64,000 nt of DNA from the NCBI RefSeq assembly GCF_900111765.1, contig NZ_FOIB01000012.1, positions 248,001 to 312,000 on the forward strand, given 5' to 3'. Under the pieces are notes generated by a model. The model saw only the letters and a list, made by a program, of their open reading frames with translations, did no database searches and had not been told where the DNA came from. The translations under genes were made by a program, and so were the position numbers. The number at the start of each line of letters is the position of its first letter. The first letter of the stretch is position 1. Below, one piece after another: positions 13,332-43,190 of this stretch. Origin of the DNA: Myxococcus fulvus (GTDB lineage: Bacteria > Myxococcota > Myxococcia > Myxococcales > Myxococcaceae).

Positions 13332-13505
13332 GAGGCCCTGGCGCCCGCAAGCCCCTGGAAATCCCGGTGTCCCGAGTCAGCGCGGTTGCTGGCATGGGGG
13401 TGGCAAGAGCGCGCCCGGGCCGTGCCGTCATCCGGGCATGGCGGGCTGCAAGACGCCAGCTCGCGCCGCGGATGGGGCCAACAGACACGAACCGGGAGGA
13501 ATCTC

Positions 13506-19550: not shown

Positions 19551-19706
19551 GGGTCCACCTCCTCGCGCGTCGGGATTCGCTCCGAAGGATTGAGGCCGCG
19601 TCCATGACGGGTTGCGGCATGGGCCAATATCGTCACGCGAGCGCAGGATGTCTGGGCAAGCGGGCGAGGCCCTGGGTGGACGGCTCCGCCGGATGGGCGG
19701 GTGATG

Positions 19707-21347
19707 TCAGGGATTGCGACGCCAGAGCTCTGCGTCGCGGGTGTAGTGCTCGCGGACCCATTGCTCGCTGCTGTCGGAGAGCTGCCACTCGCCTCGGCCG
19801 AGGAGGAGCAGGACGTCGCAGCGCGGGAGGAGCTGGAGGGCGGTGCGTTGCGAGTGTGCGCCCTGGAAGGCGGTCTCCGCGTTGGGGAAGCGCGTGGGGG
19901 CGGAGAGCGCGTCGTTCAGCATGAGGCCGTACGGGTCGACGAACGCGGGGGTGCCGCGGGGCAGGCCGGGGAGTCTGTCGGCCGCGATGGCCCATGCGGG
20001 CTCGAAGGCGCAGAGGGTGGAGTTCGTGGGGACGGTGGACCTGAGCGTGTCACCGAGCGGGAGGAGGAAGCGGTCCTTCTGTTTCGCGGCGCGGAGGACG
20101 CCGGGGAGGGTGGTGAGGATGAGGAGGGTGGTGACGGCGAGGGCGATTCGCTGGGTGCGCGCGCCGTGGAGTTTGCGCGCGATGAAGTCCGCGCCGAGTC
20201 CCGTGAGGATGGCGGTGGTGGGGGCGAGGTGCGCGTTGTCCTGGGACCAGTAGCTCTTGGAGGCGAGGAAGGTGGCGACGGTGAGGAGCCACGCGGCGCA
20301 GAAGAGGCGCTCGGTGCCGGCGTCCTGCTGACGCGTGCGCGCGAGGGCCACGGTGACGCCGACGGCGGTGACGAGGGTGAGGCCCAGGCGTCCGTCGACG
20401 AGGATGGAGAGCAGGCGGCTGGTGAGGCTCGAGTCTCCGTCGGGAGGGCGCAGGAGCTGGAAGCGCAGCAGGCCCTGGAGCATCGCGTCCGGGGCGAGGA
20501 GGAAGAAGGGGCCGAGCCACAGCAGGCTAACGCCCGCGGCGACGAGGATGACCCGGGCGACGCGCGAGCCTTCGCGTGACATCCCGCGAGCCCATGCGAC
20601 GGCGAGGACCCAGGCGCCCGCGGTCAGCTTGATGGCGCAGGCGGTGGCGAGCAGGGCTCCGGCGAGCACGTCGCTTCGTCGTGTCTGTCTTTGATTGTCG
20701 GTGGGGCGGAGCGAGACCCAGGCGAGGGTGAGACAGGTGAGGTTGAGGAGGGGTTCGAGGAAGGGGCCACGCTCGGTGGACACGGCCTCGGGGTAGACGG
20801 CGTAGGCGAGCGCGGCGACGAGGCCCGCGCGAGTGCCCCAGCGCTCCTGGGCGATGCGGCCGCTCAGCAGGGTGCTGAGTGCGCCCGCGAGCGGCATGAG
20901 CCAGCGGACGACGGAGAAGGCGAGGGCGGGGCCGAGACCGTGTGAGAGCGCGGCCACGGGGGAGAGCAGCACGGCGATGCCGGGCGGGTGGACGAAGAAG
21001 TAGTCGCGATAGGGCAGCAGGCCCTGGGAGAGGAGCGCGGCGGCGCTGAAGTAGACACCCTCGTCGTAGTCCACGGGGTGGCCGAGCGCGCCGCCCCGGT
21101 GGAAGAAGCCCGCGATGCGCAGGAGCCATGCGCCGGCCGCGATGAGCAGCAGGGGCCACCAGGGCTGACGATGCGTGGCGCGGGGTGAGGACCGGGGTGC
21201 ACTGGGGGGCGCGTACCAGATGGCCCCGGGTGTGTCGAGGTGAACCCTGGCTCCCGGGCGCCGTTGACTCGGGGGACGTCTGGGACGGTGACTGTCTTTG
21301 TCGCGGGGACGGTCCATACCCCCGGGGAGGTAGGGACGACCCTTCAT
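19707..21347 (-). CDS. GT39/ArnT-like membrane glycosyltransferase
   Basis: The protein is about 546 residues with around ten membrane segments, and a conserved acidic pair in the first extracytoplasmic loop (HPVDYDEGVYF), the hallmark of GT-C enzymes of the PMT/ArnT type (GT39, GT83). The next segment, LPYRDYFFVHPPGIAVLL, is also typical. These enzymes transfer a sugar from a polyprenyl-phosphate donor onto lipid or protein at the outer face of the inner membrane. The C-terminal ~100 residues form a soluble domain ending in CDVLLLLGRGEWQL. The start is uncertain (ATG 21347 or 21317). It is divergent from cas3, 90 bases away, so the CRISPR module begins immediately beyond it. Confidence 0.8.
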   Translation of the reverse strand: MKGRPYLPGGMDRPRDKDSHRPRRPPSQRRPGARVHLDTPGAIWYAPPSAPRSSPRATHRQPWWPLLLIAAGAWLLRIAGFFHRGGALGHPVDYDEGVYFSAAALLSQGLLPYRDYFFVHPPGIAVLLSPVAALSHGLGPALAFSVVRWLMPLAGALSTLLSGRIAQERWGTRAGLVAALAYAVYPEAVSTERGPFLEPLLNLTCLTLAWVSLRPTDNQRQTRRSDVLAGALLATACAIKLTAGAWVLAVAWARGMSREGSRVARVILVAAGVSLLWLGPFFLLAPDAMLQGLLRFQLLRPPDGDSSLTSRLLSILVDGRLGLTLVTAVGVTVALARTRQQDAGTERLFCAAWLLTVATFLASKSYWSQDNAHLAPTTAILTGLGADFIARKLHGARTQRIALAVTTLLILTTLPGVLRAAKQKDRFLLPLGDTLRSTVPTNSTLCAFEPAWAIAADRLPGLPRGTPAFVDPYGLMLNDALSAPTRFPNAETAFQGAHSQRTALQLLPRCDVLLLLGRGEWQLSDSSEQWVREHYTRDAELWRRNP

Positions 21348-21437
21348 GAAGCTGTCATAGCTCCCGGCGTGCGATGGAAACGCGCGTTGGATTGTGTCAT
21401 GGCTATGGCGGTGCCTGCCACGGCAGGTGGTGGGGGG

Positions 21438-23663
21438 ATGATGTCTGATAGTGAGCCTTCGTCCGGGCTGACCGAGGAGCCGCTCGCTCACGTCACACGC
21501 GATGGGCGTGCGCATCTCCTTTACGAGCACCTGACGGAAGTGGGGCGACTGGCGGCGCTGTTCGCGGCCCGCGAGGACATGCGCTTGTTCTGCGAGCTGG
21601 CAGGACGCTGGCATGACCTGGGCAAGTACCGGCTTCACTTCCAGAAGCGCATCCGCAAGGAGAACGGCTTCGAGTTCCATCTGGAGGTCGAAGGCTCCAC
21701 GGAGAGGGATCACTCGACGGCGGGTTCTCTGTGGGCATTACGCATGGACCAACGGCTGTGGCCGGTGGCCATGGCCATTGTGGGACATCATGGTGGACTC
21801 CGTGACTCGGAGGATTTCGGAGACCGGGTCGGGCGGCCGGAGAAGCGGAAGCTCCTGGAGGAGTCGCTGGCCGCAGGGGCTCCCGAGGACCTGCGCGAGT
21901 TGCCTCCATTCTTGGACCTGGGTGTCGCCGAAAAGTTCTCGCTGCACAGGCGCGAGTTCTGGACGCGAATGCTCTTCTCCGCGCTATGCGATGCGGACTT
22001 CCTGGACACCGAGCGCTTCTTGAATGCCGCTCGTGCCGCGGATCGTCGCACCAGCGTGACTCTGGAGCGGCTCTCTGCCGCGCTGAGAGCCTTCCTGGAC
22101 CGCAAGCAGAGCGGTGCTCCGGACACGGAGGTGAATCGTGTCCGGCGAGAAGTGCTCTCGTCCGTCCTGGCATCCTCGTCAAATCCGCCGGGTGTCTTCA
22201 GCCTCACCGTCCCCACGGGAGGAGGCAAGACGCTCACCTCCATGGCGTTCGGGTTGGAGCACGCCCTGGCACGTGGACTTCGACGGGTCATCGTCGCCAT
22301 CCCGTATACGTCCATCATCGAGCAGAGTGCCGCCGTCTATCGGGAGGCCTTCGGCGAGTCAGGGTGTGCGGTCATCGAGCACCACTCATCCGTGGACCCT
22401 GACAAGGAGACGGCGCTCAACCGCGTCGCCAGTGAGAACTGGGACGCACCGGTCATTGTCACCACCACAGTGCAACTTCTGGAGAGCCTGTTCGCCTGTC
22501 GAACCTCGGCCTGCCGCAAGCTGCACAACATCGCCGGGAGCGTCATCGTGCTGGATGAGGCGCAGACGCTGCCCCCCGCTTTGCTGACGACCATCCTGGA
22601 TGGATTGACGACGCTGGTGGAGGACTACGGCTGCTCGGTGGTCATCTGCACCGCGACTCAGCCCGCCTTGGGGCAGCGTGCTGGATTCCCCGCGGGATTC
22701 CCTTCGATTCGAGAGCTCGTCCCGACGGAGTTGCGTGCCTTCGAGCGACTGCGCCGCGTGACGGTACGCTGGCCCGAGAGTCGGAAGCCCATCTCCTATG
22801 AAGAGCTTGCCGATGAGGTGGCTCGAGAGCGTGATGTGCTCGCGGTGGTCCACAGTCGGGATGACGCGCGCAAGCTGTGCGCGCTGGTGGACGCCCGCGT
22901 CGGCAGCGGAACGACGCTGCACCTGTCCGCGCTGATGTGCCCGGAGCATCGCTCTCGCGTCCTCGCGGAGATCCAGGCGCGGAAGCGACGCGGAGAGCCA
23001 GTGCGACTGGTGGCGACCCAATTGGTCGAAGCCGGAGTGGACGTGGATTTCGCCGTCGTCTACCGGAGCATGGCGGGGCTGGATTCGCTGGCGCAGGCAG
23101 GCGGACGTTGCAATCGAGAGGGGCTCTTGGAGGGGCTCGGAGAGCTGCGGGTGTACGAGGCCCCGACGCCGCCGCCACGCGGAGTGCCTCAGATGGCGCT
23201 GACCGTGACGCGGACACTCCTGGCACAGGACCCTGACCTGGACCTGTCGCCCGACAACTTCCGACGGTTCTTCGAGCGGCTCTACGCGAACGCGAGCCTG
23301 GACGGGAAAGGCATTCAAGACCTCCGTGCGGCGCTCAGGTTCAAGGAGGTCGCCAAGAAGTTCCAGCTCGTGGAGGACGAGTGGAGCGCACCCGTGGTGG
23401 TGCCCTACGACGGATGCGAGCCATTGCTCGAGGAACTGCGACGGCTGGGGCCCTCCCGAGAGCGCCTGCGGGCCCTCCAGCGGTTCACGGTGACCGTGCC
23501 TCGCAAGCTACGGGATGCCTGGGTGGCGCGGGAGATGGCGCTGATTGCGGCGGACACCGTGGTGTACCTGGGGCCCGAGCGCAAGTCCGCCTACGACGAG
23601 ACCTACGGTCTGGTGCCCGGCCAAGTGGGCCTCAACGACCCGGCTTTACTCATCCGCGGCTGA
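21438..23663 (+). CDS. cas3: Type I-C CRISPR helicase-nuclease Cas3
   Basis: The protein is 741 residues and appears complete. The N-terminal HD nuclease domain shows HLLYEHLTEVG, WHDLGKY (about 57-63), DHSTAG and IVGHHGGL. The superfamily 2 helicase has Walker A VPTGGGKTLT (about 257-266), motif II VLDEAQTLPP, motif III CTATQP, and motifs V/VI QLVEAGVDVDFA and AQAGGRCNREG. It is recruited to target-bound Cascade and then unwinds and degrades the non-target strand. ATG 21438 (a second ATG follows directly) has a G-rich upstream stretch. It is the first gene of the cas operon; the cas5 ATG lies 20 bases after its stop, with its own AGGAGG. Confidence 0.97.
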   Translation: MMSDSEPSSGLTEEPLAHVTRDGRAHLLYEHLTEVGRLAALFAAREDMRLFCELAGRWHDLGKYRLHFQKRIRKENGFEFHLEVEGSTERDHSTAGSLWALRMDQRLWPVAMAIVGHHGGLRDSEDFGDRVGRPEKRKLLEESLAAGAPEDLRELPPFLDLGVAEKFSLHRREFWTRMLFSALCDADFLDTERFLNAARAADRRTSVTLERLSAALRAFLDRKQSGAPDTEVNRVRREVLSSVLASSSNPPGVFSLTVPTGGGKTLTSMAFGLEHALARGLRRVIVAIPYTSIIEQSAAVYREAFGESGCAVIEHHSSVDPDKETALNRVASENWDAPVIVTTTVQLLESLFACRTSACRKLHNIAGSVIVLDEAQTLPPALLTTILDGLTTLVEDYGCSVVICTATQPALGQRAGFPAGFPSIRELVPTELRAFERLRRVTVRWPESRKPISYEELADEVARERDVLAVVHSRDDARKLCALVDARVGSGTTLHLSALMCPEHRSRVLAEIQARKRRGEPVRLVATQLVEAGVDVDFAVVYRSMAGLDSLAQAGGRCNREGLLEGLGELRVYEAPTPPPRGVPQMALTVTRTLLAQDPDLDLSPDNFRRFFERLYANASLDGKGIQDLRAALRFKEVAKKFQLVEDEWSAPVVVPYDGCEPLLEELRRLGPSRERLRALQRFTVTVPRKLRDAWVAREMALIAADTVVYLGPERKSAYDETYGLVPGQVGLNDPALLIRG

Positions 23664-23683
23664 AGCACTTCCAGGAGGTGTCG

Positions 23684-24334
23684 ATGAAGACGAGCAAGCG
23701 GTTTCGCGTGCGGGCTGGAGGTCCCATGGCCTGCTTCACACGTCCGGAGATGAAGGCTGAGCGGATGAGCTACGAGGTGATGACGCCTTCGGCGGCTCGA
23801 GGCGTGCTGGAGGCCATCCTGTGGAAGCCGGCCATTCGCTGGCAGGTCCACGAGATTGCCGTCCTTGCTCCCGTGAAGTGGACGAGCTTCCGCCGCAACG
23901 AGGTGAACAGCCGCGCGGTGGTGGGGAAGTTCGACTACGTGGCGGATGAGGACCGCGCGCAGCGCAACACGGTGGCGCTGCGTGACGTGGACTACGCCAT
24001 CACCGCGTCGTTCTCGCTCGTGCCGGGCAAGGCGGGCTCCGAGGACAACGTCCGCAAGTTCGAGGAGATGTTCGAGCGGCGACTGGAGAAGGGACAGTTC
24101 TTCCATGCGCCGTACCTCGGCTGCCGCGAGTTCGCCGCGCGCGTGGAGCCGATGGGGGAGGACCTCCGGCCCGTGGACCTGGAGGTCGAGCGCAGACCGC
24201 TGGGGCTCGTGTTCTACGACTTCGAGTTCGGTGAATCGACGCGTCCGCTGTTCTTCGAGGCGTACCTGGACCGGGGCGTGCTCCACGTCCCGGGCCGGGA
24301 CGAGGTGCTCAAGCAGAATGGAGGCCGGCCATGA
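23684..24334 (+). CDS. cas5: Type I-C Cas5 (Cas5d/Cas5c), crRNA-processing nuclease
   Basis: The protein is 216 residues. The start ATG at 23684 is fixed by AGGAGG at 23673-23678. The family signature is clear: FRVRAGGPMACFTRPEMKAE, then RMSYEVMTPSAARGVLEAI and FRRNEVNSRAV. In type I-C systems, which lack Cas6, this protein cuts the CRISPR repeat 3' of the hairpin and leaves an 11-nt 5' handle; it then stays in Cascade. The repeat found here has exactly 11 bases after its stem. The last four bases overlap the cas8c start (ATGA), so the two are translationally coupled. Confidence 0.96.
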   Translation: MKTSKRFRVRAGGPMACFTRPEMKAERMSYEVMTPSAARGVLEAILWKPAIRWQVHEIAVLAPVKWTSFRRNEVNSRAVVGKFDYVADEDRAQRNTVALRDVDYAITASFSLVPGKAGSEDNVRKFEEMFERRLEKGQFFHAPYLGCREFAARVEPMGEDLRPVDLEVERRPLGLVFYDFEFGESTRPLFFEAYLDRGVLHVPGRDEVLKQNGGRP

Positions 24335-26082
24335 TGCTCACGGCGCTCAACGACTTCGCGCGGGCGCGAGGATTGATTGACGATCCGCTCTACGAGTTGA
24401 AGCCCGTGGACTTCCTCATCCGCCTGGATGTGAAGGGGAAGTTCAAAGGGTTGGAGTACACGCAGGACGAGAATGGACGGGGCATCGCTCGACGGATTCC
24501 TCGGCTTCCTGCGCGCTCGATGAATGTCGCCGCCGGGTTCCTGGCGGACAACACCAAGTACGTGTTGGGACATGACCCGGAGGCTCGCGAGGGGAAGGCG
24601 GGCAAGGGCGTTGCACGGCTCGCGGCGTTCGTGAAGCTGGTGAAAGAAGCAGTGGCTGAGACGGACGTCCCCGAGCTTCGGGCTGTAGAAAAATTCCTCG
24701 AGAGCGATGCCGCACGCGCAGCAGCACTCGCGGATCGGAACCCAGAGGAGACTTGGACGGGCTCGGAGATGCTCGCGTTCGTCGTGGGCGACTCGCTCGA
24801 CCCCGTGCATCAGCTTCCCGAGGTTCATGCATGGTGGGTGAAGCGCAGAGCGCGGGCTGCAACCCAGGGCAAGGTCGGACTGTGTCTGGTGACTGGAACA
24901 ATAGGGGTAGTGGAGAGGACGCATCGGAAGTTGATGAATGTTCCGGAGACTCAGGGCTCTGGGGCGTCCTTGGTATCATTCAAGCCAAGCGCTTTTGAGT
25001 CACATGGCCTGAAGCAGGGTGACAACGCACCCATCTCCCAACAGGCCGCACTCGGGTATGTGCTTGCACTCAATGAGCTGCTTCGCAGGTCGGACGAGCG
25101 CCGCTTCCGGCAAGGGGTTCAGCTCGGAGAGGACTCGGTGATGCTGTTCTGGACGAACAGTACGGCGGCGCAGGAGCGGGAGTTGCAGGATGTGATGGAC
25201 CCGACCGAAGAGAGTTTGCGCAAGCTCATTGAGTCTCCACTCAAGGGCTTGGAGCGGGCGGAGTTCGATACGAAGCGCTTCTATGCTGTCACTCTCGCCG
25301 GTAACTCGGGGCGTGTCGCCGTACGTGATTGGTTCCAGGCGAGCATTGGCGAGGTGAAGCAGAACCTTCGTCGCTACTTCGCGGACTTGAGCCTGGGCGA
25401 GGACACGAGACTCAAGCCCACTCCCATCTGGCGTCTCCTCAAAGCCGTGGAGGCACCTTCAGGTCGGGGGCTGCCTTCGAATGTCGCGACGCGGATGATG
25501 GGCGCGGCCATCCGAGGACATGCGTTCCCTCGCCAGCTCCTTTCCGCGGCGCTGGACCGGCTGAGGTTGCCGCCTTCGGACGACAAGTTCGAGCGCGAGC
25601 AACTCCGCCTCCGTATTGCGCTCATCAAGGCCACCCTCATCCGTCTTTCCCGCAGTGGACCCGCTTCCGTGGAGGTTTCCGTGTCATTGGATAAAGCCAA
25701 CACTTCCCAGCCCTATGTCCTCGGGCGCCTCTTCGCCGTGCTGGAGCGTCTGCAGGGCGCGGCGTTGGGTGACATCAATGCCTCCATCCGGGACCGCTAC
25801 TTCGGTGCGGCTTCGCGAAACCCCGCCACCGTCTTCCCCCGGCTGATTCAGCTCTCCGTGCATCACGCTGCGAAGGCGGAGTCGGGCGGATGGCTGGAGA
25901 AGAAGAAGGGTGAGGTGATGGCGCTGCTGCCGCCGGAGAAACCCTTCCCGCCAGTGCTCACCTTGGAGAATCAGGGACTCTTCGCTGTGGGCTACTACCA
26001 CCAGCGCGAGGAGTTCTTCACGAAGCGTCCGCAGGCCGAAGGCAAGGCCGCGAAGGACGCCCCCTCCGAAGCCGACGACTGA
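24331..26082 (+). CDS. cas8c: Type I-C Cascade large subunit Cas8c (Csd1)
   Basis: The 583-residue protein has the normal Csd1 length. The N-terminus [18 protein letters not shown], the block [20 protein letters not shown], and later [18 protein letters not shown] and [12 protein letters not shown] are characteristic of Csd1. Within Cascade it recognises the PAM and contacts the target. In type I-C, an internal start in this gene often also yields Cas11c, the small subunit, which would correspond to the C-terminal third. No obvious internal Shine-Dalgarno could be confirmed. Parts of the gene (about 24650-25300) have lower GC than flanking core genes, consistent with horizontal origin. Confidence 0.95.
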
Positions 26083-26125
26083 CGCGCCCTGCCTCCAACC
26101 CTATTCACACGAGAGAGAGAACACC

Positions 26126-27040
26126 ATGTCCGAGCTCAAAAACCGCCACGACTTCGTCCTGCTGTTCGACGTCCAGGATGGCAACCCCAATGGAGACCCC
26201 GACGCGGGCAACCTGCCACGCATCGATCCGGAGACGGGCGATGGCCTGGTTACCGACGTGAGCCTCAAGCGCAAGGTGCGCAACTTCGTCCTGCTCACCC
26301 AGGAGAAGAAGCCGGGGTTCGACATCTTCGTGAAGGAGAAGGCTGTCCTGAACGCCTGCATCGACGCGGCCTATGAGGGCTTGGGCATCGACCTGAAGGC
26401 GAAGCCCAAGAGCGGCAAGGATGGGAAGAAGCGCGAGAAGGAGGGCAGGGCCCAGGGCTCTGAGGTCGAGGATGGGCGCAAGTGGATGTGCAAGACCTTC
26501 TTCGACGTGCGCACCTTCGGCGCCGTCATGTCCACGGGCGCCAACGCGGGACAGGTACGCGGGCCGGTGCAGCTCACGTTCGCCCGTTCGGTGAGCCCCA
26601 TCGTCTCGCAGGAGCACTCGATCACCCGCATGGCCGTGGCGACGGAGGCCGAGGCGGAGAAGCAGAAGGGCGACAATCGCACCATGGGGCGCAAGAACAC
26701 GGTGCCGTACGGGCTCTATCGCGCGCATGGCTTCGTCTCACCGCACCTGGCGAAGCAGACGGGCTTCAGCTCGGGTGACCTGGACCTGTTGTTCAAGGCG
26801 CTCCTGAACATGTTCGAACTGGACCGCAGCGCGGCGCGCGGCCTGATGTCCATGCGCAAGGTCATCGTCTTCAAGCACGGGTCTGAGTTGGGCAATGCGC
26901 CTGCGCACGCGCTGTTCGACCGGGTGCATGTGGATCGCGTGCAGACGGAGAAGCCGGTGCGCTCCTTCAAGGATTACAAGGTGAAGGTGGACACGGCGGG
27001 GATGCCCAAAGGGGTAGAGGTGATGGACTTGGCGGGATGA
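26126..27040 (+). CDS. cas7: Type I-C Cascade backbone Cas7 (Csd2)
   Basis: The protein is 304 residues and shows the Csd2 signature: [63 protein letters not shown] and [18 protein letters not shown]. Multiple copies line the crRNA in the effector complex. It lies 43 bases after cas8c. In most type I-C loci cas4, cas1 and cas2 follow here; none is present in the 472 bases before the array, so the locus has interference genes only. Confidence 0.96.
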
Positions 27041-27512
27041 GGACCGCTGGAGTGGAGAGGGCGTCGCTGTTCGCTTTGCGATGCCTGTTGCTCTGCGCGG
27101 GGTAGGGTCGTTCATCCACATGGAGCAGCGTTGGGCGGGGAGGATGCCCGCACCTCAATGGAGGGCTGCTCCATGTGCGAGGGATTCTCCCAGGCATGTC
27201 GCTTGGCCCGGGCGGCACGTGGATCGCGAGGCGGCTGAGCTGGGAGAGACTGCGGCTGGTGGAGTATGCGGACCTGATGGGTTACCACTGGGGGGCCACG
27301 AGTCTCACTGAATGGCGGCCGTACACTGTACTGGCTAGAGCGTAGAGATTTCATCTCGGTGCATGCTCCACATGATGCTCGCGCTCTTTGACATCCTCAT
27401 AGTCGTTACGAAGTATGTGGAGCGAGACAGGTGAGAGGCCTCGCCTGCGTAGACCCAAGTTCGTGCGTGCCGGTCTGATTGAGATGCTATCAGTGTGGCA
27501 TAGCCGGGCTGA
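27041..27512 (+). other. Leader-side region of the CRISPR array; no adaptation genes
   Basis: These 472 bases lie where cas4-cas1-cas2 normally stand in type I-C loci. No reading frame here resembles those proteins. The only open stretch of note is a 49-codon frame (27196-27345: MSLGPGGTWIARRLSWERL...), of unrecognised origin and low confidence, and a short palindrome GTACA-C-TGTAC at 27321-27331. The last ~170 bases are less GC-rich than the surroundings, as expected of a CRISPR leader, and carry a promoter-like element. The repeats read GTCGC...GAAAC on the plus strand, so the leader is on this side. Confidence 0.6.
27388..27416 (+). promoter_or_regulatory. Candidate leader promoter for pre-crRNA
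   Basis: A perfect -35 hexamer TTGACA (27388-27393) is followed after 17 bases by AAGTAT (27411-27416) as a partial -10. The position, about 100 bases before the first repeat on the repeat-reading strand, suits the promoter of the array transcript. It would need to drive about 5.3 kb of pre-crRNA to reach the last spacer. Confidence 0.45.
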
Positions 27513-30500
27513 GTCGCGCCTCATGACGGCGAGGGGCGTGGGTTGAAACCTCGGCGGATCTGCGCGGTCGCGCTTCGCGACCAGTCGCTCTTCGTGGCCG
27601 TGTGGGGGTGGGTTGAAATCCGGACGTGCAGTGGATGCCGTCGCCCAGGTTGGTCGCTCCTGGTGGCCGCGAGGAGCGTGGGTTGAAATGACCGCTACCT
27701 GGCGGAGCACAGCGCTCCGAGGTAGTTGCCCCTCGTGGCCGCGAGGAGCGTGGGTTGAAACGTGTGACCGATGAGGCAGCTCTCGCCACCCGTCAGTCGC
27801 TCCTCGTGACCGCGAGGCGCGTGGGTTGAAACCACTGCGTCTGGTCGATGACTCGGACGAGTCCCGCCCCTCCTCGTGACCGCGAGGAGCGTGGGTTGCA
27901 ACCAGGATGAGCTGCGCAGCATGCTGCCCGGCCAGTAGGCCGCTCCTCTCGTGACCGAGAGGAGCGTGGGTTGAAACACGAAGCTGCGGCGGACGCTGGG
28001 CCGCCTGACGTCGCTCCTCGCGACCGCGAGGAGCGTGGGTTGGAACGCGGACGGCGCTAAGCGAGTCGTCGCGAAGCGTCGCACCTCGTGACCGCGAGGA
28101 TCGTGGGTTGACGCCGGTTCGGCGGCTCGCGCATCACGGACGACACGCTCGTCGCTCCTCCTGACCGCGAGGAGCGTGGGTTGAAACCTCGGGGACAGCA
28201 CCACGAAGCGGGTGCCGTTCAGTCGCACCTCGTGACAGCGAGGATCGTGGGTTGAAACTCGGGTCCATCGCGGAGTGCACGCGCGGCCATGGTCGCACCT
28301 CGTGACCACGAGGAGCGTGGGGTGAATCGTCAATAGCCTCAACACCGGCGATGTCGAGATCGTCGTGGCTCCTCGTGACCGCGAGGAGCGTGGATTTAAA
28401 CCTGGCTGCGTGTCTTATTGCGGAACAATGCTGTCGCTCCTTGTGACCGCAAGGAGCGTGGGTTGAAACCGAAACGGCACCGTCGTGGAGAGCGTCGATT
28501 CCAGTCGCTCCTCGTCACCGCGCGGCGCGCGGGCTGAAACCAGTATCTGACCAACCGCAACGCCCGCGTCATGTCGCTCCGCGTGACCGAGAGGAGCGTG
28601 GGTTGAAACTGCCACTGGGCTTCGTGGCCGGACTTCCACGACGTCGCTCCGCGTGACCGAGAGGAGCGTGGGTTGAAACTTCAACGACGCCACGCCGGGC
28701 GCCCTCATCGCGGTCGCTCCTCGTGACCGAGAGGAGCGTGGGTTGAAACCGGGCGTGGCGGGCGCCGTCACCAAGACGCAGCGTCGCTCCTCGTGACCGC
28801 GAGGAGCGTGGGTTGAAACGACGAGCCCGCGGTGGTGCGCGAGCAGGTGGCGCGTCGCTCCTCGTGACCGCGAGGAGCGTGGGTTGAAACACGTACAACC
28901 TGGGCGCGCCGCTGCGAGAGGCCCGTCGCTCCTCGTGACCGCGAGGAGTGTGGGTTGAAACACCGACGTGGCTGGCGCGTTCGGCCAGACGGTGTCGCTC
29001 CTCGTGACCGCGAGGAGCGGGGGTTGAAACGTGAAACCGAAGCAGGGATTGAAGGTGCGCGACGTCGCTCCTCGTGACCGCGAGGAGCGTGGGTTGAAAC
29101 TGCGTCTGCTCCGTCACTTCCTTCGCCAACAGCGCCGTCGCTCCTCGTGACCGCGAGGAGCGTGGGTTGAAACCGCTCGCGCGAGGCTTGAGTGTCTCGG
29201 CTCAAGCAGTCGCTCCTCGTGACCGCGAGGAGCGTGGGTTGAAACGCGAAGAAAACCCCGTTCGACACCCAGGAGGTCAGTCGCTCCTTGTGACCGCGAG
29301 GAGCGTGGGTTGAAACCCGGTGGCGCTGGACGGCCTCGCGGAGTTGCTCGGTCGCTCCTTGTTACCGAGGGGAGAGTGGATTGAAACCAGCACGCTGGTT
29401 CAGATGTGTTGTTCCAAGAGGTGGTCCCTCGTAACCGCGAGAGGTGTGGGTTGAAACGTTGATGTCGTAGCGCAACGTCCGCACGTCATCGGCGCTCCTC
29501 GTGACCGCGAGGAGCGTGGGTTGAAACCAGGCTGAGGCATGCCGTCTCGTCCCCAGCCTGAAGTCGCTCCTCGTGACCGCGAGGAGCGTGGGTTGAAACG
29601 GTCGCTGGGGGGGCCACTCAGGAGTCTATGTCGCTCCTCGTGACCGCGAGGAGCGTGGGTTGAAACCGTGCCCCCAACGACACTTGGCGCGCCAGTCCGG
29701 TCGCTCCTCGTGACCGCGAGGAGCGTGGGTTGAAACACGTCACGCTCCCGGTGTAGCCCAGCAGGCGCGGTCGCTCCTCGTGACCGCGAGGAGCGTGGGT
29801 TGAAACCGCGTCATGCGAGCCACGGGTCGCTTGCGCTCACAGTCGCTCCTCGTGACCGCGAGGAGCGTGGGTTGAAACACCGCGACGAGGTTGTGGTGGC
29901 TGAGGAGCACTGTCGCTCCTCGTGACCGCGAGGAGCGTGGGTTGAAACAGGTGTCGTCGATATAGGCGAACGCCATGGGCGTCGCTCCTCGTGACCGCGA
30001 GGAGCGTGGGTTGAAACATCGGTGACTCCGTATGAGGGCCCGCCCCGGAGGTCGCTCCTCGTGACCGCGAGGAGCGTGGGTTGAAACGGTGGGAGCGACA
30101 TGTACCAGTCGGCGGGTGGCGTCGCTCCTCGTGACCGCGAGGAGCGTGGGTTGAAACCTCATTCCCATGATGACCAGGAGGCCCACCAAGAGTCGCTCCT
30201 CGTGACCGCGAGGAGCGTGGGTTGAAACACCAAGGGCCGCCCCGAGGGCTACGAGCTCTACGTCGCTCCTCGTGACAGCGAGGAGCGTGGGTTGAAACCA
30301 GGTATGCAGCCCCGCCGCGATGAACAGCACCAGTCGCTCCTCGTGACCGCGAGGAGCGTGGGTTGAAACGACGCCGAGCGCACGAGCCGCGGGCACGCAG
30401 AGTTGCTCCTCGTGACCGCGAGGAGCGTGGGTTGAAACGACTGCTCCGGACTCGTCACCTGGGCGCTTCGCGTCGCTCCTCGTGACCGCGAGGAGCGTGG

Positions 30501-32701
30501 GTTGAAACAACGCAATCATGCAGTACACGTACGAACCCGGCTCGCTCCTCGTGACCGCGAGGAGCGTGGGTTGAAACTCGCTGGACGAACTCTGGGAGAC
30601 CGCGCCCTCTCGCGTCGCTCCTCGTGACCGCGAGGAGCGTGGGTTGAAACCTTCCGAGAGGGACGTCGCGCGGGCGAAGATGCCCGGTCGCTCCTCGTGA
30701 CCGCGAGGAGCGTGGGTTGAAACGTGGTCCCGCTCCTCATGCGTCGCCGGATTCTTGGCGTCGCTCCTCGTGACCGCGAGGAGCGAGGGTTGAAACTTGC
30801 CGGAGGTGCCGCCCTCCTCCTCCAGCCACAGTCGCTCCTCGTGACCGTGAGGAGCGTGGGTTGAAACACGTGGCCCCAGCACAGCCCCCCGCGCCGCGCT
30901 GTCGCTCCTCGTGACCGCGAGGAGCGTGGGTTGAAACCGCCACTTTCGCTCGACATACGCGACTGCCCTGTCGCTCCTCGTGACCGCCAGGAGCGTGGGT
31001 TGAAACCAGACGATGCCCTCGGGCGTCTGGACCCTCTCGTCGCTCCTCGTGACCGCGAGGAGCGTGGGTTGAAACAATGCGCCGGACGGTCTGCACAGTG
31101 TCCTGCTCCGGTCGCTCCTCGTGACCGCGAGGAGCGTGGGTTGAAACATCAAGGGCTATCAGACGGTCGCTCACGGGTGGGCGTCGCTCCTCGTGACCGC
31201 GAGGAGCGTGGGTTGAAACGAGATCCTCACCCCGACGTCAGACCTCACGCACGTCGCTCCTCGTGACCGCGAGGAGCGTGGGTTGAAACCGACGCCGTCG
31301 GCGCGTGGCTGACGCTGGCCAGTCGCTCCTCGTGACCGCGAGGAGCGTGGGTTGAAACCGGGTGCTGAACGCGCTGTTCCGCCGCCGCCGCGTCGCTCCT
31401 CGTGACCGCGAGGAGCGTGGGTTGAAACGCCAACATGTCCACCTCGGGTACGGAGAGGCGGGTCGCTCCTCGTGACCGCGAGGAGCGTGGGTTGAATCGA
31501 CATGACTGCCTCCTGCGGTTGGTGTTGCGGTGTCGCTCCTCGTGACCGCGAGGAGCGTGGGTTGAAACAGCCTGGACGCCGCGTGGGACGGGACGGAAGA
31601 CGACGGTCGCTCCTCGTGACCGCGAGGAGCGTGGGTTGAAACGGCCGACAGCGGTCCGGCAGGGAGCCCCGTGATGGTCGCTCCTCGTGACCGCGAGGAG
31701 CGTGGGTTGAAACAGGCGCTTGGCCTCGGCGTCCTTGCGCGCCCTGGTCGCTCCTCGTGACCGCGAGGAGCGTGGGTTGAAACCCGTGGGCGCTCTGTTG
31801 CAGGCGGCAGGGCCACGTCGCTCCTCGTGACCGCGAGGAGCGTGGGTTGAAACTCGGCCAGCCGCATGCTGGACGCCGCCAACGTGGTCGCTCCTCGTGA
31901 CCGCGAGGAGCGTGGGTTGAAACGCCCACGAACCCTCGCGCCGCGCCGTGCAGATGTCGCTCCTCGTGACCGCGAGGAGCGTGGGTTGAAACATGTCCCG
32001 GGGGACAGAGGGGATAGGGGTGGACAGTCGCTCCTCGTGACCGCGAGGAGCGTGGGTTGAAACCCTGCAACACCAGCAGGTTGCACGCGCGATTCAGCGT
32101 CGCTCCTCGTGACCGCGAGGAGCGTGGGTTGAAACAGCTGGCGCAGGTGGAAGCGGGGGCCGTCCGGCTCGTCGCTCCTCGTGACCGCGAGGAGCGTGGG
32201 TTGAAACCTGCGTCGCGCAGTCCTCGCAGAAGTCGGAGTGTCGCTCCTCGTGACCGCGAGGAGCGTGGGTTGAAACGAGGGCACACCCTCGGACCCGCCG
32301 CGCGCCCGCCCGTCGCTCCTCGTGACCGCGAGGAGCGTGGGTTGAAACCACTTTCGCGACCTCGATCGTCTCGGCCTCATCGAGTCGCTCCTCGTGACCG
32401 CGAGGAGCGTGGGTTGAAACCTCTTCCACGTCTTCCTGGGCCCGAGGCCCGATCGCTCCTCGTGACCGCGAGGAGCGTGGGTTGAAACGCGGGGCTGGGC
32501 TCGGTGGCCGGCGCCTGCTCCGTCGCTCCTCGTGACCGCGAGGAGCGTGGGTTGAAACGGGACGACGGACGGCAGGCTGCTCATCAACGACGTGTCGCTC
32601 CTGGTGACCGCGAGGAGCATAGGTTGAAACACCGGAGCGCAGGCGGCGGGTGCTGGCAACAGGCGTCGCTCCTCGTGACCGCGAGGAGCGTGGGTTGAAA
32701 C
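27513..32701 (+). CRISPR. Type I-C CRISPR array, about 74 repeats
   Basis: By hand count there are 74 repeats and 73 intervals. The 37-nt consensus is GT, stem CGCTCCTCG, loop TGACCG, stem CGAGGAGCG, and tail TGGGTTGAAAC: a perfect 9-bp hairpin with an 11-nt tail equal to the type I-C crRNA 5' handle. Spacers are mostly 33-38 nt. Repeats 1-18 (27513-28749) are strongly mutated; 19-26 are near consensus. Repeat 27 (29351-29387) and repeat 28 (29421-29457) are decayed; 29-74 (29491-32701) are almost uniform, apart from small changes such as those at 30402, 31462 and 32594. The 33-nt 'spacer' between repeats 27 and 28 resembles the sequence after the last repeat, so the array looks like two arrays joined. 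No repeated spacer was noticed. Confidence 0.98.
29388..29420 (+). repeat. Internal copy of the array's 3' flank (trailer)
   Basis: The sequence after decayed repeat 27 starts CAGCACGCTGGTTCAGAT, and the sequence after the true last repeat (from 32702) starts CAGCACGCTGGTGCAGAT. The match continues through GTTGT with two further differences and then drifts. Repeat 27 itself is decayed, as terminal repeats often are. This is best read as the old end of an upstream array. Confidence 0.7.
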
Positions 32702-32991
32702 CAGCACGCTGGTGCAGATTCGTTGTGAAGAACTCACCCCTGATGAACGTGGGGTGCATGGGTAACGCTGGCGGCACTTGTAGGAACTCTGCCGAACCAA
32801 GGCTGCTCTCGGTGGCCATCGGGAAGTCGTTTGATGATGAGGCCCTTCGTCTGCGGCCCTGAAGTCCTGTCGATGGAGGCACGCCGTAGAAGTGCAGCAG
32901 GTTGAAAACTCTCGCGGCCCGCTGAAGTTGTCAGTCCCCGCCGGCAGGATGGACAGCCCTGCCTCCCAACGAGGCGCCTCCAGGGGACTCC

Positions 32992-34293
32992 ATGAAATGG
33001 GCTTCAGTCGCTTCGTTGCTGCTTCTTGCCGTGGGGTGCTCAACTACCCGAGTCGTCCATATCGATGTCGGCAATGGACAGCGGGTTGTCCACGAACCGG
33101 TGGAGGTCGCTCCAGTCGAGGTGAGCGAGGAAGAGTTCAAGTCTGCTCTCACCCGAATTATCCTCGATATGCGCATGGACGTTGCCTTCCGGGACGCCGA
33201 TGAACTGGATGCGCGAGGGTGGGAGCGGTCCAGGACGCTGCTCGCTTCCGCGAAGGGCCTTGCGGACTCCCGCTCGGGGACTTCACCCGAGGCCTTGTAC
33301 TCGCGCATCTGTCCCGATGTGGACGACTGTCTGACCCTCGTCGATGGAACGGGGCTGACGTTCTCACGAATGGACCGGACGCTCATGGCGCTGTCCTTCG
33401 CGCTCGATACCGTGTGGGAGAGTGTCGAAGCGGAAGTCGGCAAGATGCTGAACCCGGCCGCACTCAAGGCCATGGTGACCTCAGCCGCGCTGACCGTGCT
33501 GATCACGATGACCCTGCCCGAACCCGTCACCAAGGTCATCGCGGTGGCACTGACGGCGGCGATGGTGGCCTATCTGGGCGTCGTGCCGGTCTGGGAGATT
33601 GGACGCGGCTTCGTCCAATTGTGGGATGATGCGGGAACGGCGATGAGCGTCATCGAGTTGCAGGACATTGGTCGTGGCTTCGGAAAGGTTCTTGGCGCGA
33701 ACGGCACACGTGTCCTGGTGCTCGTCGTCATGGCCGCCCTTGGTGGAAAGAGCGCGATGGCGAGCCAAGGGCCGAAGCTCCCCGGGTTTCCGCAGGCCGC
33801 GCTCCGGGTGCAGAGTGAGGCTGGCTTCCAACTCAGTGCGGCGTTGAATGGTGGCGTGTCATCCATTGCGCTGCCCGCCGCTGGCGTGCTGAGCGTGACA
33901 CTGGCCCCAGGGGCTGCGGCGGCTCTCGCGATGTATTCGGACGGACGGCATCCGGGTGATGCGGAAGGCCCGGTCCATCACATCTGCACGAACAAGAATC
34001 TGGTCTCTCCGGCCTCTGGTGGCCCGTGGACGCCGTTGTGCGAAGAAGTCTTCGCCCGCGCAGGGATGTCCCTGGAGGATGTGGCCAACAAGGTGCGCCT
34101 GAGCGGGCATCAGGGACCCCATCCGCGCGCATACCATGAGGCCGTGTTACGGAGGCTGAATGATGCGCTCGGAAAGTGCCGGAACAAGGACGCATGCCGG
34201 AGCCGATTGCTCGAGGAACTCGCGAAGATCTCCGACGACCTCCTGAGGTCAGATTCCGAGCTTCGACGCCTGATCGTTCCCAGCGAGGGTTAG
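32992..34293 (+). CDS. SitA-like lipoprotein toxin with C-terminal AHH nuclease domain
   Basis: The protein is 433 residues. A lipoprotein signal (ASVASLLLLAVGCSTTR, lipobox Cys16) is followed by a helical region, hydrophobic segments at about 155-200 and 238-250, and a C-terminal HNH/EndoVII-fold AHH nuclease motif. The motif residues are HH at 329-330 (PVHHICTNKN), then SGHQGPHPRAYHEAVLRRL with His373, His377 and His382. Lipoprotein toxins of this layout in myxobacteria are Sit (swarm inhibition) effectors that pass between kin by TraA/TraB outer-membrane exchange; that delivery route is inferred from family knowledge. The gene starts 290 bases past the CRISPR array and is followed after 3 bases by its presumed immunity genes. 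Confidence 0.85.
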   Translation: MKWASVASLLLLAVGCSTTRVVHIDVGNGQRVVHEPVEVAPVEVSEEEFKSALTRIILDMRMDVAFRDADELDARGWERSRTLLASAKGLADSRSGTSPEALYSRICPDVDDCLTLVDGTGLTFSRMDRTLMALSFALDTVWESVEAEVGKMLNPAALKAMVTSAALTVLITMTLPEPVTKVIAVALTAAMVAYLGVVPVWEIGRGFVQLWDDAGTAMSVIELQDIGRGFGKVLGANGTRVLVLVVMAALGGKSAMASQGPKLPGFPQAALRVQSEAGFQLSAALNGGVSSIALPAAGVLSVTLAPGAAAALAMYSDGRHPGDAEGPVHHICTNKNLVSPASGGPWTPLCEEVFARAGMSLEDVANKVRLSGHQGPHPRAYHEAVLRRLNDALGKCRNKDACRSRLLEELAKISDDLLRSDSELRRLIVPSEG

Positions 34294-34296
34294 TGG

Positions 34297-34878
34297 ATGC
34301 CTGACGAGAACTTCTACGACATCGGAATTGCGGATCTCCCTCAGTGGGTCCTGGAGCTACCTGTTCCGGCTGTTGGTGGCGAACTGGAAGACCCCTGGAT
34401 GTTCAGCGATGGGAGACTCTTGCCAGACCCAGGACTTTTGAGAAGCAGCCCGTTCCGTGACGGACCGCAGAGGTCCTTCTCGGTGGCGAATTCGGGGCGA
34501 ACTCCTATCGCGGATGAACAGGTCGCGAGGGTCTTCCGCAAGCTGGCTCCCGATGACGTCCAGGTCTTCCCCATCGAGGTCGAGGGTGCGAAGACGCCGC
34601 TCTACATCATCAATGCAACCCGGTGCTTCCAGTGTGTCGATGAAGAGAACTCGTTGGAGGTGCAGCGCTACCCTCCAGAGGGCGTCGCGCCCGAAAGGGT
34701 GGGGACGTACCGTGCAATCCATGGGTTGCGTATAGACCTCGCCAAGACCTCAGGAGCCCGCGTCTTCCGGATACAGGGTTACTCCTCCGCGCTCATCGTC
34801 TCCGAGGAACTCAAGCGCGCGCTGGAGGAGGTCGGAAACCTTGGCGTTTCATTCGAGCGTGTCACTGGACCGCGCTGA
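34297..34878 (+). CDS. Imm11-family immunity-like protein, copy 1
   Basis: The protein is 193 residues. It matches the Imm11 (DUF1629) pattern: an N-terminal FYDI start, a central strand block LAPDDVQVFPIEVEG, then YIINATRCFQCVDEENS and a C-terminal GLRIDLAKTSGARVFRIQG ... LIVSEELKRALEE. Imm11 proteins are predicted cytoplasmic antidotes of polymorphic toxins. It begins 3 bases after the toxin stop and is followed after 15 bases by a double-CXXCG gene, so the three genes read as one operon. Which of the four downstream genes neutralises the toxin is not decidable from sequence. Confidence 0.8.
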   Translation: MPDENFYDIGIADLPQWVLELPVPAVGGELEDPWMFSDGRLLPDPGLLRSSPFRDGPQRSFSVANSGRTPIADEQVARVFRKLAPDDVQVFPIEVEGAKTPLYIINATRCFQCVDEENSLEVQRYPPEGVAPERVGTYRAIHGLRIDLAKTSGARVFRIQGYSSALIVSEELKRALEEVGNLGVSFERVTGPR

Positions 34879-34893
34879 AGAGGACGAGGACAC

Positions 34894-35616
34894 GTGGGGC
34901 GACTTTTCTGGGTGGACGAGGACAATCGGGTCGCGGATGGATATGGCGGGAGGGTCAATGCCTCGCACCGATGGGGGCTGCCCGGCTTGAGGGACTGTCC
35001 CGGCTGTGGCGAGACCTGGAGTTCCTCCGGTCACGCCTATCCGAGCGTCGACCTGTCTCTCCTGGAAGAGCACCGCGAGTTCGAGGGCGCCAGGCCCGAG
35101 CCATATCCGGAGTTCATGCGGCTGCGAGAGTTGGTTCGTCCCCTGGCACCCTCTGGGGACTCGCTGCCTCCGGGGACGGAGTTCGGTCCCCTCGAAGGAA
35201 AAGCGCTCGGGAAGTACCCTTCGTTCGCTTGGCTCGGCTCAAGCCTTCTTGTCCACCACCTGGACCTGGAGTCCCTTCAGGAAGCAGGGCTCAAAGGACT
35301 GGTCGGTTGCCCGACCGCGCTGACGGCTCGTCAGAAACCGGTGACAGATTTGCTGGAACTTGAGGTGCTCCCGCGAGGGGCTCTCCACCCCGACTGCTTT
35401 CCTCCCGACGAGGCTCCTCCGTGTTCGACCTGCGGTCGACTGGGCCTCAGTCGTCCCGACGAGCCGCTCCTCGACGCGGCCTCCCTGCCCACGGCCTTGG
35501 ACCTGTTTCGCGTGGGCAACTTCGCCACGATGGTCATTGGCACGGAGCGCTTCAAGGAGGCCGTCGAGCAGTTGGGCCTCGATGGCCTCACCTTCCGTGA
35601 GCTCCCAACCCGTTGA
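34894..35616 (+). CDS. Double-CXXCG immunity protein (SitI-like), copy 1
   Basis: The protein is 240 residues. It carries the two motifs that define the Myxococcus double-CXXCG paralogous family: CPGCGETW (about residue 34) and CSTCGRLGL (about 178), probably one zinc site. Members pair with Sit toxins and some are annotated as SitI6-type immunity proteins. The GTG start at 34894 is preceded by GAGGACGAGG. The C-terminal block FRVGNFATMVIGTERFKEA resembles the end of Imm11 proteins, so the two families may share a fold element. The stop overlaps the next start (TTGA). Confidence 0.82.
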   Translation: MGRLFWVDEDNRVADGYGGRVNASHRWGLPGLRDCPGCGETWSSSGHAYPSVDLSLLEEHREFEGARPEPYPEFMRLRELVRPLAPSGDSLPPGTEFGPLEGKALGKYPSFAWLGSSLLVHHLDLESLQEAGLKGLVGCPTALTARQKPVTDLLELEVLPRGALHPDCFPPDEAPPCSTCGRLGLSRPDEPLLDAASLPTALDLFRVGNFATMVIGTERFKEAVEQLGLDGLTFRELPTR

Positions 35617-36188
35617 GGCCCCACTCTCGATACTTCCTCCTCAAGGAGGACGTGAAGGCCGGGGCTTGGTTTCTGGGGGATCCATTGGACGCACTCGGCC
35701 AGAAGGTGGAAGACATCTGGGCCTTCACAGAGGGGCGTCCGGTTCAGGCGCAGGGTCGCCTGAAGATTCCCGTCATCGAGCCCGGCCTTCGCTTGGAGTT
35801 CAGCGCGGCAGGCGTCGGCGCGACACCCATCGTCCATGTCCGCGTGGCCACGGTCCTCGCGGAGTTGGCCCCGGAGGACGTGCAGCTCATCCCCGTGGAA
35901 GTCGAAGGCTGCCCTGACCAGTTCCTCATGCTCGTGGCCACGAAGTTGGTGCGCTGCATCGATGAGACCGCCTCGCGAGAAGTGCAGCGCTACGGGCCAG
36001 ACGACGGACGGCCAGAGAAGCTCGGCCAATACCAGAGCGTCGCCGGGATGCGGATCGACCCAGCCCAGGTTGGCGACGCCAAGGTGTTTCGCACCTGGGG
36101 TTGGACCATCGCCCTCGTCGTCTCGGAGGACATCAAGAACTCCCTGGAGCGTGCGAAGATCGAGGGGGCCACGTTCGAGGAGGTCTGA
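35613..36188 (+). CDS. Imm11-family immunity-like protein, copy 2
   Basis: The protein is 191 residues and paralogous to the gene at 34297. Shared blocks include LAPEDVQLIPVEVEG, LVATKLVRCIDETAS, EVQRYGPDDG and MRIDPAQVGDAKVFRTWG. The start is taken as TTG at 35613, overlapping the previous stop by four bases; it gives almost the same length as copy 1, which supports it, whereas the first internal ATG would remove a conserved N-terminal section. It is more diverged from its paralogue than the CXXCG pair is, by eye. Confidence 0.75.
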   Translation: MRPHSRYFLLKEDVKAGAWFLGDPLDALGQKVEDIWAFTEGRPVQAQGRLKIPVIEPGLRLEFSAAGVGATPIVHVRVATVLAELAPEDVQLIPVEVEGCPDQFLMLVATKLVRCIDETASREVQRYGPDDGRPEKLGQYQSVAGMRIDPAQVGDAKVFRTWGWTIALVVSEDIKNSLERAKIEGATFEEV

Positions 36189-36193
36189 ACCCC

Positions 36194-36916
36194 ATGGGGC
36201 GGTTCTTCTGCATCGGTGAAGACACGGAGGCCGCGGCCGGGTACGGCGGGAGCTTCAATGCCGAGCATCGGTGGTTCCTGCCCGGAGTGAAGGACTGTCC
36301 CGGCTGTCGTGCGAGCTGGAGTGACCTCGGTTGCTCCTATCCCAGCGTCGACCTGTCCTCCCTCGCGGAGCACCGCTCGTTCGAGGAGAACAGGTCCGAA
36401 CCCTTCAAGGAGTTCGTGCGACTGCGGGACCTCGTTCGCCCGCTGCTCCCTCCCGATTCCCCACTGCCTCCTGGGACTCAGCTCGGTCCCCTCACCGGCA
36501 AGGCGCTCGGGAAGTTCCCCTCGTTCTCCTGGTTCATCGCTTCGCTCGTCGTGAACCACGGGGACCTGGAATCACTCCAGGAACATGGGCTCACAGGACT
36601 CGTCGGTCACCCCACTGCGCTGACAGCTCGGCAGAAACCCGTGACGGACCTGGTGGAACTCGAGGTCCTCTCTCGTGGTTCCCTGCATCCCGCTTGCTTC
36701 CCTCGCAACATTCCCGCGCCTTGCTCGACCTGCGGTCGGCTCGCGCTCCGTCGCCCCGACAAGCCCATCCTCGACGCGGCCTCACTGCCCACGGACCTGG
36801 ACCTGTTCCGCCTGACGAACTTCTCCGCGCTGCTCATCGTCACCGAGCGCTTCAAGGACGCCGTCGAAGCGCTGGGACTCGATGGGCTCACCTTCCTCGA
36901 CGTGGCCTCACGCTGA
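36194..36916 (+). CDS. Double-CXXCG immunity protein (SitI-like), copy 2
   Basis: The protein is 240 residues, exactly the length of copy 1 (34894), and alignable along its whole length, with roughly two-thirds of positions alike by eye. Both Cys pairs are kept, but the first motif is CPGCRASW (Gly replaced by Arg); the second is CSTCGRLAL. It starts 5 bases after the Imm11 copy 2 stop. Its 3' end overlaps the convergent hydrolase gene by nine bases. A specificity shift after duplication, or protection against a different toxin allele, is the natural reading. Confidence 0.8.
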   Translation: MGRFFCIGEDTEAAAGYGGSFNAEHRWFLPGVKDCPGCRASWSDLGCSYPSVDLSSLAEHRSFEENRSEPFKEFVRLRDLVRPLLPPDSPLPPGTQLGPLTGKALGKFPSFSWFIASLVVNHGDLESLQEHGLTGLVGHPTALTARQKPVTDLVELEVLSRGSLHPACFPRNIPAPCSTCGRLALRRPDKPILDAASLPTDLDLFRLTNFSALLIVTERFKDAVEALGLDGLTFLDVASR

Positions 36917-37600: not shown

Positions 37601-37650
37601 GTCCTCCACTGTAACGTCGCCCCGGGCCCCCGGCTCAGGTGATTACCCGG

Positions 37651-43138: not shown

Positions 43139-43190
43139 ACGTGGAGGTCTACACCGTCCCGGCTTGGGCGCGCACGCGGGAAGGTTTCGC

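What the first reader, a model, noticed from the sequence alone, without database searches (positions are those of the whole stretch)
27513..32701. CRISPR array looks like two arrays fused end to end
The interval after repeat 27 (29388-29420) is homologous to the sequence that follows the very last repeat (from 32702): the first 25 bases differ at about four positions. Repeat 27 is decayed as terminal repeats typically are, and repeat 28 is decayed too, after which 46 near-identical repeats begin. The simplest reading is array A (27 repeats plus its trailer) joined to array B (47 repeats plus the same trailer) by unequal recombination or tandem duplication. Array B has no leader of its own.
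Basis: seen in the sequence. Interest (0 to 1): 0.75.

Follow-up and report, generated by a model that had tools for sequence, protein, structure and literature searches.

The report
Two CRISPR memory arrays joined together
A bacterial immune memory locus that seems to have lost the genes for recording new infections looks like an old, decaying record with a younger record spliced onto its end, which suggests that such memories can be recombined as well as recorded.

Summary
In a 74-repeat array the interval after repeat 27 matches the sequence after the last repeat at 22 of 25 bases; the next best of 73 spacers scores 11. The sister genome G005 has the same element once, near the end of its array among worn repeats. 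So the 'trailer' is the array's ancient last spacer; a 75th, degenerate repeat follows it. Array A keeps a worn leader. cas4 is a fragment, cas1 and cas2 are missing from the locus, and no cas1 was found in the genome. Repeats 1-18 average 3.4 mismatches, repeats 29-72 average 0.2. New spacers enter beside the leader, so a younger B beyond A's oldest spacer was probably built elsewhere and joined through the repeats. Exchange with another lineage is my favoured route, since cas8c-cas7 next door are patchwork. Collapse of two tandem arrays is a serious rival: two relatives have array-cas-array on one contig. Recapture of the same phage site, and recent duplication, are less likely. Clean repeats 19-26 inside A are unexplained. 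Related processes are known; this is an unusually legible case.

The parts
21240..27040 (+). cas3, cas5d, csd1 (cas8c) and cas7: interference genes, all open
   Evidence: Pfam Cas3/HD, Cas_Cas5d, Cas_Csd1, Cas_Cas7; no stops, pairwise dN/dS of the window against five relatives 0.11-0.24
24600..26750 (+). patchwork region in cas8c-cas7 where the sister relation to G005 is broken in patches (about 24.7-25.0 and 25.7-26.7 kb)
   Evidence: sliding identity; dS to G005 0.51 and 0.50 against 0.28 and 0.13 for cas3 and cas5
27041..27330 (+). broken fragment of cas4; the rest of cas4, cas1 and cas2 missing
   Evidence: alignment with G005; tblastn cas4 46.6% over 58 aa, no cas1 or cas2 match in 19001-38000
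27374..27512 (+). worn leader of array A
   Evidence: aligned with G005 leader, score 82, best of 300 shuffles 36
27513..28749 (+). repeats 1-18, worn
   Evidence: mean 3.39 mismatches, 0 of 18 perfect
28783..29316 (+). repeats 19-26, clean, unexplained in a two-part model
   Evidence: mean 0.38 mismatches, 5 of 8 perfect
29351..29387 (+). repeat 27, degenerate
   Evidence: 6 mismatches
29388..29420 (+). S27, internal copy of the founder (last) spacer
   Evidence: 22/25 to sequence after repeat 74; related to G005 interval after repeat 37 of 39
29421..29457 (+). repeat 28, degenerate; probable junction repeat
   Evidence: 7 mismatches, all in its first 25 bases, p 0.047, not decisive
29458..32701 (+). 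array B, intervals 28-73 and repeats 29-74, nearly clean
   Evidence: repeats 29-72 mean 0.20 mismatches, 35 of 44 perfect
32702..32732 (+). S74, terminal copy of the founder spacer (31 nt)
32733..32769 (+). repeat 75, very degenerate terminal repeat
   Evidence: 16 mismatches; 14 of 58,260 other positions as close

Best explanation
The array is a splice of at least two arrays of different age. The left one, behind a worn leader, belongs to a locus that lost cas4-cas1-cas2, stopped recording and mutated; it still ends in the ancestral last spacer with degenerate repeats. Recombination between repeats, at or beside repeat 28, attached the interior and end of a younger array that carries its own diverged copy of the same last spacer. 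Shown: the two end units, their relation to the single end unit in the sister genome, the worn leader, the missing cas1, the step in repeat wear. Inferred: that B was built beside a working leader elsewhere, that repeats were the crossover sites, and that the partner came from another lineage. The splice itself I hold at about 0.8; with the other-lineage route at about 0.5. Proposed working: the intact interference genes can still use crRNAs from the cleaner part, so a locus that can no longer record can have its memory renewed by recombination (function not tested).
For: S27 and the sequence after repeat 74: 22/25, next best spacer 11/25. Same element in G005 at the array end among repeats with 7, 1, 9 and 14 mismatches. 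Repeats 27 and 28 are the only ones from 19 to 72 with 3 or more mismatches. Best change point in wear after repeat 28, 0 of 2000 permutations as strong. Leader-side wear goes with loss of cas1: 0-2 distinct variants in the first ten repeats of 17 leader-attached arrays from 16 genomes, all with a cas1 match, against 35 in the window (inflated by an indel in repeat 2) and 9 in G026, the two cas1-less genomes with a long array. A and B share only the founder spacer. Patchwork descent of cas8c-cas7 shows exchange at this locus in the window's line or G005's.
Against: Repeats 19-26 are clean in the middle of A. Of 49 variants in repeats 1-18 (repeat 2 left out) only 27 are private, so part of the wear was copied during earlier growth and the contrast in age is smaller than 17-fold. 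G026 shows worn repeats 1-13 then clean ones without an internal founder spacer, so wear can stop sharply without this kind of fusion, or G026 is a second splice. No donor array or shared B spacer was found among the fetched arrays. Which genome, G000 or G005, holds the foreign cas patches is unknown, and the patches are not contiguous with the array.
Confidence: 0.5

Rival explanations
1. Cis collapse of tandem arrays: the locus once held two arrays around a cas operon. The first decayed, the second kept recording; a deletion between A's terminal repeat and a B repeat removed the operon and leader between them, fusing the arrays and possibly removing the last cas1 in the same step.
For: G017 (L085) and G002 (L083) carry array - complete cas operon - array on one contig, and two leaders in G017 agree at 138 of 150 columns. 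Explains a young B and the absence of cas1 together. All 41 perfect repeats of the window's genome lie in this one array.
Against: No trace of a second operon or leader at the junction. G005 shows repeats only on two contigs that fit one array. The terminal spacers of the two arrays in G017 and G002 do not look alike by eye. Also leaves repeats 19-26 unexplained.
Confidence: 0.25
2. Recapture: S27 is an ordinary spacer taken from a phage related to the one that gave the founder spacer; there is one array and no fusion.
For: Look-alike spacers from related sites occur: L080 spacers 6 and 27 match at 23/25, window spacer 20 and G005 spacer 3 at 21/25. In type I systems the PAM fixes the start (recalled), so register is not proof.
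Against: Exactly the two repeats flanking S27 are degenerate, as at the G005 array end; a recently captured spacer would sit between clean repeats. The copies differ by gaps as well as substitutions.
Confidence: 0.12
3. Recent tandem duplication of the whole array within this lineage.
For: Two copies of the same end unit in one array.
Against: No other shared spacer between A and B; the two founder copies are as far apart as each is from another species; unequal wear.
Confidence: 0.05
4. Assembly artefact joining two arrays.
For: The genome is in 42 contigs and arrays of some relatives break contigs.
Against: Repeats 27 and 28 carry unique mutations and the intervals around them are unique, so no exact repeat longer than about 37 nt bridges the junction. 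Reads were not available.
Confidence: 0.03

Closest known systems
Type I-C CRISPR-Cas loci of Myxococcaceae (PMC11237760, abstract and passages seen)
   Same: cas3-cas5-csd1-cas7 order, 37-nt repeats ending in GTTGAAAC, conserved place in the genome
   Different: no cas1 or cas2 at the locus, worn leader, two founder-spacer end units in one array
Conserved trailer-end spacers and polymorphic terminal repeats (reviewed in PMC8047081, passages seen)
   Same: oldest spacer and worn terminal repeats kept at the distal end
   Different: here such an end unit also lies inside the array
Spacer duplication, rearrangement and between-array recombination (PMC11472070, passages seen; it cites Kupczok et al. 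for recombination being rare, that paper not held)
   Same: repeat-mediated rearrangement of spacer blocks
   Different: a whole younger array end appended behind the founder spacer of an older array
Array-cas-array loci in the same genus (G017, G002; this work)
   Same: two arrays with the same repeat family at one locus
   Different: still separated by a complete cas operon and a second leader

Membership tests
Type I-C CRISPR-Cas (interference module) | cas3, cas5d, csd1/cas8c, cas7 together | tested here: met
   Pfam matches above cut-off for Cas3 domains, Cas5d, Csd1, Cas7; the subtype name itself is recalled
Type I-C CRISPR-Cas (complete, recording) | cas4-cas1-cas2 beside the leader | tested here: not met
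   cas4 fragment only, no cas1 or cas2 match at the locus; no Cas1 family match in the genome. cas2 was not searched genome-wide
Type I-C CRISPR-Cas (complete, recording) | conserved leader before the first repeat | tested here: inconclusive
   recognisable but worn against G005 (82 vs best shuffle 36); above shuffles for 5 of 8 leaders compared, not for L079, L095 and L089
Fusion of two arrays | two copies of an array-end unit in one array | tested here: met
   S27 and S74 units
Fusion of two arrays | different age of the two parts | tested here: met
   change point after repeat 28, 0 of 2000 permutations; but repeats 19-26 are clean
Inter-lineage recombination as the cause | foreign tract with boundaries at the array and a donor | tested here: inconclusive
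   patches in cas8c-cas7; no donor, direction unknown
Tandem duplication | shared spacers in the same order in both halves | tested here: not met
   only S27/S74 at local score 15 or more among window spacers
Functional memory | crRNAs made from both halves | not testable with these tools
   needs RNA reads

The most novel reading that the evidence does not exclude
Lineages that have lost spacer acquisition renew their CRISPR memory by homologous import of array segments from relatives that still record, with the repeats as crossover sites: immunity passed sideways without Cas1-Cas2. G026, the other cas1-less genome with a long array, may be a second case.
Probability: 0.3. Interest if true: 0.75.

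Novelty: new variant of a known kind. Interest (0 to 1): 0.45.

Why it matters
An internal founder spacer is a fossil of array splicing, an event that spacer-order reconstructions treat as rare. Wear of repeats after loss of cas1 gives a rough clock for when a memory block joined. If import is the route, CRISPR loci without adaptation genes, usually regarded as frozen, could still gain immunity, which strain comparisons can test directly.

Tried and rejected
Leader on the right: repeat wear (left worn, right clean) first suggested reading the array the other way. In relatives the clean repeats and the leader lie on the cas2 side and worn repeats at the far end, and the window keeps a recognisable leader on the left, so this was dropped.

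Crossover inside repeat 28: all 7 mismatches lie in its first 25 bases (p 0.047), but the G005 repeat after the founder spacer also has a mostly clean 3' half, so this was not used.

Interval 28 as relative of G005 interval 38: scores no better than unrelated spacers. Founder spacer in G007, G016 and G019: the G019 end spacer agrees at 15 of 25; left open.

Downstream flank as donor DNA: 32702-32990 has only short hits outside its own genome (best E 0.0014 over 27 bases). The AHH/Imm11 stretch behind it has relatives elsewhere in the genus, for example G024:C1:5317517-5319475 at 78%, so it looks like a separate insertion; beyond 36.9 kb the sister is 94% identical.

G006 as a second fusion: its two odd internal repeats (44, 45) look like 1-nt deletions, not an array end.

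Founder pattern elsewhere: with up to 3 mismatches in 96 genomes of the family only the window's own two copies (G005's copy has a gap and is missed by such a pattern). In public named genomes a 17-base pattern gave 56 stretches, no record title naming a myxobacterial genus, three titled Deltaproteobacteria; the stretches were not read, and records near the window's genome may be left out.

Phage targets: for 29458-32664, 11 phage records at E up to 1; for 27550-29457, 2 records. The best, MT839601 (E 2e-4), matches four pieces of the query to the same 86 bases, hence probably the repeat; not followed up. The others are at E 0.6-1. Three degenerate patterns (founder spacer, spacer 8, spacer 20) had 0 exact matches in IMG/VR.

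Backbone clock: of 15 ORFs tried against G005, only four (13386-15629 +, 18042-19550 -, 40456-41409 +, 41195-43216 -) had dN/dS of 0.4 or less and no stop in the G005 match; their dS is 0.10-0.13. The other 11 were dropped as uncertain frames or genes.

Not included in the leader-wear comparison: G007 (2 repeats left), G022 (no array in the stretches fetched) and the genomes without a repeat match.
Full report
What was checked. The array was chained with the repeat consensus: 74 repeats of 37 nt at 27513-32701. The intervals after repeat 27 and after repeat 74 begin with the same sequence, 22 of 25 bases; no other of the 73 spacers scores above 11. By base composition the chance is 8.5e-10, or 6e-8 over 73 comparisons, but this does not count repeated capture of related phage sites, which exists in these arrays (L080 spacers 6 and 27, 23 of 25). 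What singles out the interval is its setting: repeats 27 and 28 carry 6 and 7 mismatches, and no other repeat from 19 to 72 has 3 or more.

What the shared sequence is. The window lies in a 10.8 Mb genome (G000) of a genus represented by 27 genomes, its own included. G005 is the closest of them: 94% identity at 36.9-43.4 kb and 91% at 13.4-21.2 kb. There the same element is the interval after repeat 37 of the 39 on the contig with the array's end, where repeats 36-39 have 7, 1, 9 and 14 mismatches. After the last repeat of the window's array a 75th, very degenerate repeat is recognisable at a spacer's distance (32733-32769, 16 mismatches; 14 of 58,260 other positions are as close). The 'trailer' is thus the oldest spacer, followed by a worn terminal repeat. 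The three copies are about equally distant (5 of 31, 6 of 31 and 5 of 30 aligned bases differ, with 2-3 gap columns).

Orientation, leader and lost genes. In relatives with cas4-cas1-cas2 the repeats on the cas2 side are clean and the far end is usually worn. In the window the sequence before repeat 1 aligns with G005's leader (score 82, best of 300 shuffles 36). It exceeds its shuffles for five of eight leaders tried (G005, L081, L082, L084 and barely L094) and not for L079, L095 and L089. G005's leader scores 124-162 against L079, L081, L082 and L084, but only 85 and 62 against L094 and L095, so the window's 82 is low for a sister though not outside the range of the genus. cas7 is followed by a cas4 fragment; cas1 and cas2 have no match within 19001-38000. 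The Cas1 family has no match in the window's genome; 20 of 27 genomes of the genus have one. cas2 was not searched genome-wide.

Age of the parts. In 17 leader-attached arrays of 16 other genomes, all with a cas1 match, the first ten repeats hold 0-2 distinct variants; in the two cas1-less genomes with a long array they hold 35 (window, inflated by the indel in repeat 2) and 9 (G026). Wear near the leader therefore goes with loss of recording. The clock is rough: repeats 1-18 differ from consensus at 0.092 per site, 0.076 without repeats 1-2, against 0.0055 in repeats 29-72. Only 27 of 49 variants in repeats 1-18 (repeat 2 left out) are private, so some were copied while the array still grew. 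Backbone dS to G005 in four usable ORFs is 0.10-0.13, about 0.05-0.065 per lineage. A thus looks dead for a time of the order of the species split, B for much less.

Why B was probably not built here. New spacers enter beside the leader (PMC8047081, passages). Here the leader, A and A's founder spacer all lie on one side of B. A younger B beyond A's oldest spacer was then assembled beside another leader and joined later. A and B share no spacer but the founder at the threshold used, which argues against recent duplication.

How it was joined. The join keeps the repeat register, as expected of recombination between repeats. Route 1, exchange with another lineage: cas3 and cas5 are sister-like to G005 (dS 0.28, 0.13), parts of cas8c and cas7 are not (dS 0.51, 0.50), with patches at about 24.7-25.0 and 25.7-26.7 kb where other species are as close or closer. 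So exchange happened at this locus in the window's line or in G005's. An exchange that replaced cas8c to A over a resident, recording B would explain foreign patches, dead leader, missing cas1 and clean B together; but the patches are not contiguous and no donor was found. Route 2, collapse in cis: G017 (L085) and G002 (L083) have array - complete cas operon - array on one contig, and a further leader on another G017 contig agrees with that of the downstream array at 138 of 150 columns. A deletion between two such arrays would fuse them. I give the splice about 0.8 in all, route 1 about 0.5, route 2 about 0.25.

What does not fit. Repeats 19-26 (28783-29316) are clean between worn ones (0 of 5000 permutations): a third segment, or uneven wear. 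Spacer 8 of A resembles the interval after repeat 35 of G005's end contig (22 of 25); if inherited, what lies to its right in A should be older still, which makes clean repeats 19-26 stranger. In G026 repeats 1-13 are worn and 14-42 clean (0 of 2000 permutations; repeats 43-45 left out) with no internal founder spacer seen: a second splice, or a sign that wear starts at the leader for another reason.

Function. The four interference genes are open, and the window's pairwise dN/dS against five relatives is 0.11-0.24, inside the 0.05-0.31 seen among relatives; these pairwise values do not isolate the time since cas1 was lost. Whether the leader still works and which repeats are processed could not be tested. 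Phage searches gave no convincing target (details under tried and rejected).

Literature. PMC11472070 (passages): about 3% of spacers need complex events, mostly duplications, and it cites Kupczok et al. for recombination between arrays being rare; that paper is not held. PMC8047081 (passages): conserved trailer ends and polymorphic terminal repeats. PMC11237760 (abstract and 12 of 32 passages): I-C common in Myxococcaceae; fused arrays do not appear in what I saw. Six phrases for fused or merged arrays gave 3 papers, one of them on CRISPR arrays (PMC11472070). I found no description of a founder spacer repeated inside a natural array in searches, of which I mostly saw listings; the library lacks most subscription journals.

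Verdict. A real composite array with a clear polarity and a marked age difference; a known kind of process in an unusually legible form. That the organism is a member of Myxococcaceae is my inference; no call names it.

Noticed in passing
L085, L086 (G017); L083 (G002): Two species have an array both upstream and downstream of a complete cas operon on one contig; in G017 a further leader-attached array on another contig has a leader 138/150 identical to that of the downstream array.
   Followed up: partly
L089 (G007): Locus in collapse: cas4-cas1-cas2 absent, cas3 with a large internal gap in its match, array reduced to one repeat, an end spacer and a degenerate repeat.
   Followed up: partly
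L095 (G026): Second genome without any Cas1 match; leader-side repeats 1-13 worn, the rest clean.
   Followed up: partly
window 32992-34878: AHH nuclease-domain gene followed by an Imm11-family gene directly behind the array, absent from that place in G005; relatives of the pair lie elsewhere in other genomes.
   Followed up: partly
window 34894-35616 and 36194-36913: Two Gmx_para_CXXCG-like copies, 67% identical proteins, in tandem.
   Followed up: no
window spacer 20 (28891-28924) and L076 spacer 3: Look-alike spacers (21/25) in two species whose differences fall mostly on every third base, as if the same coding site of related phages had been captured twice.
   Followed up: no
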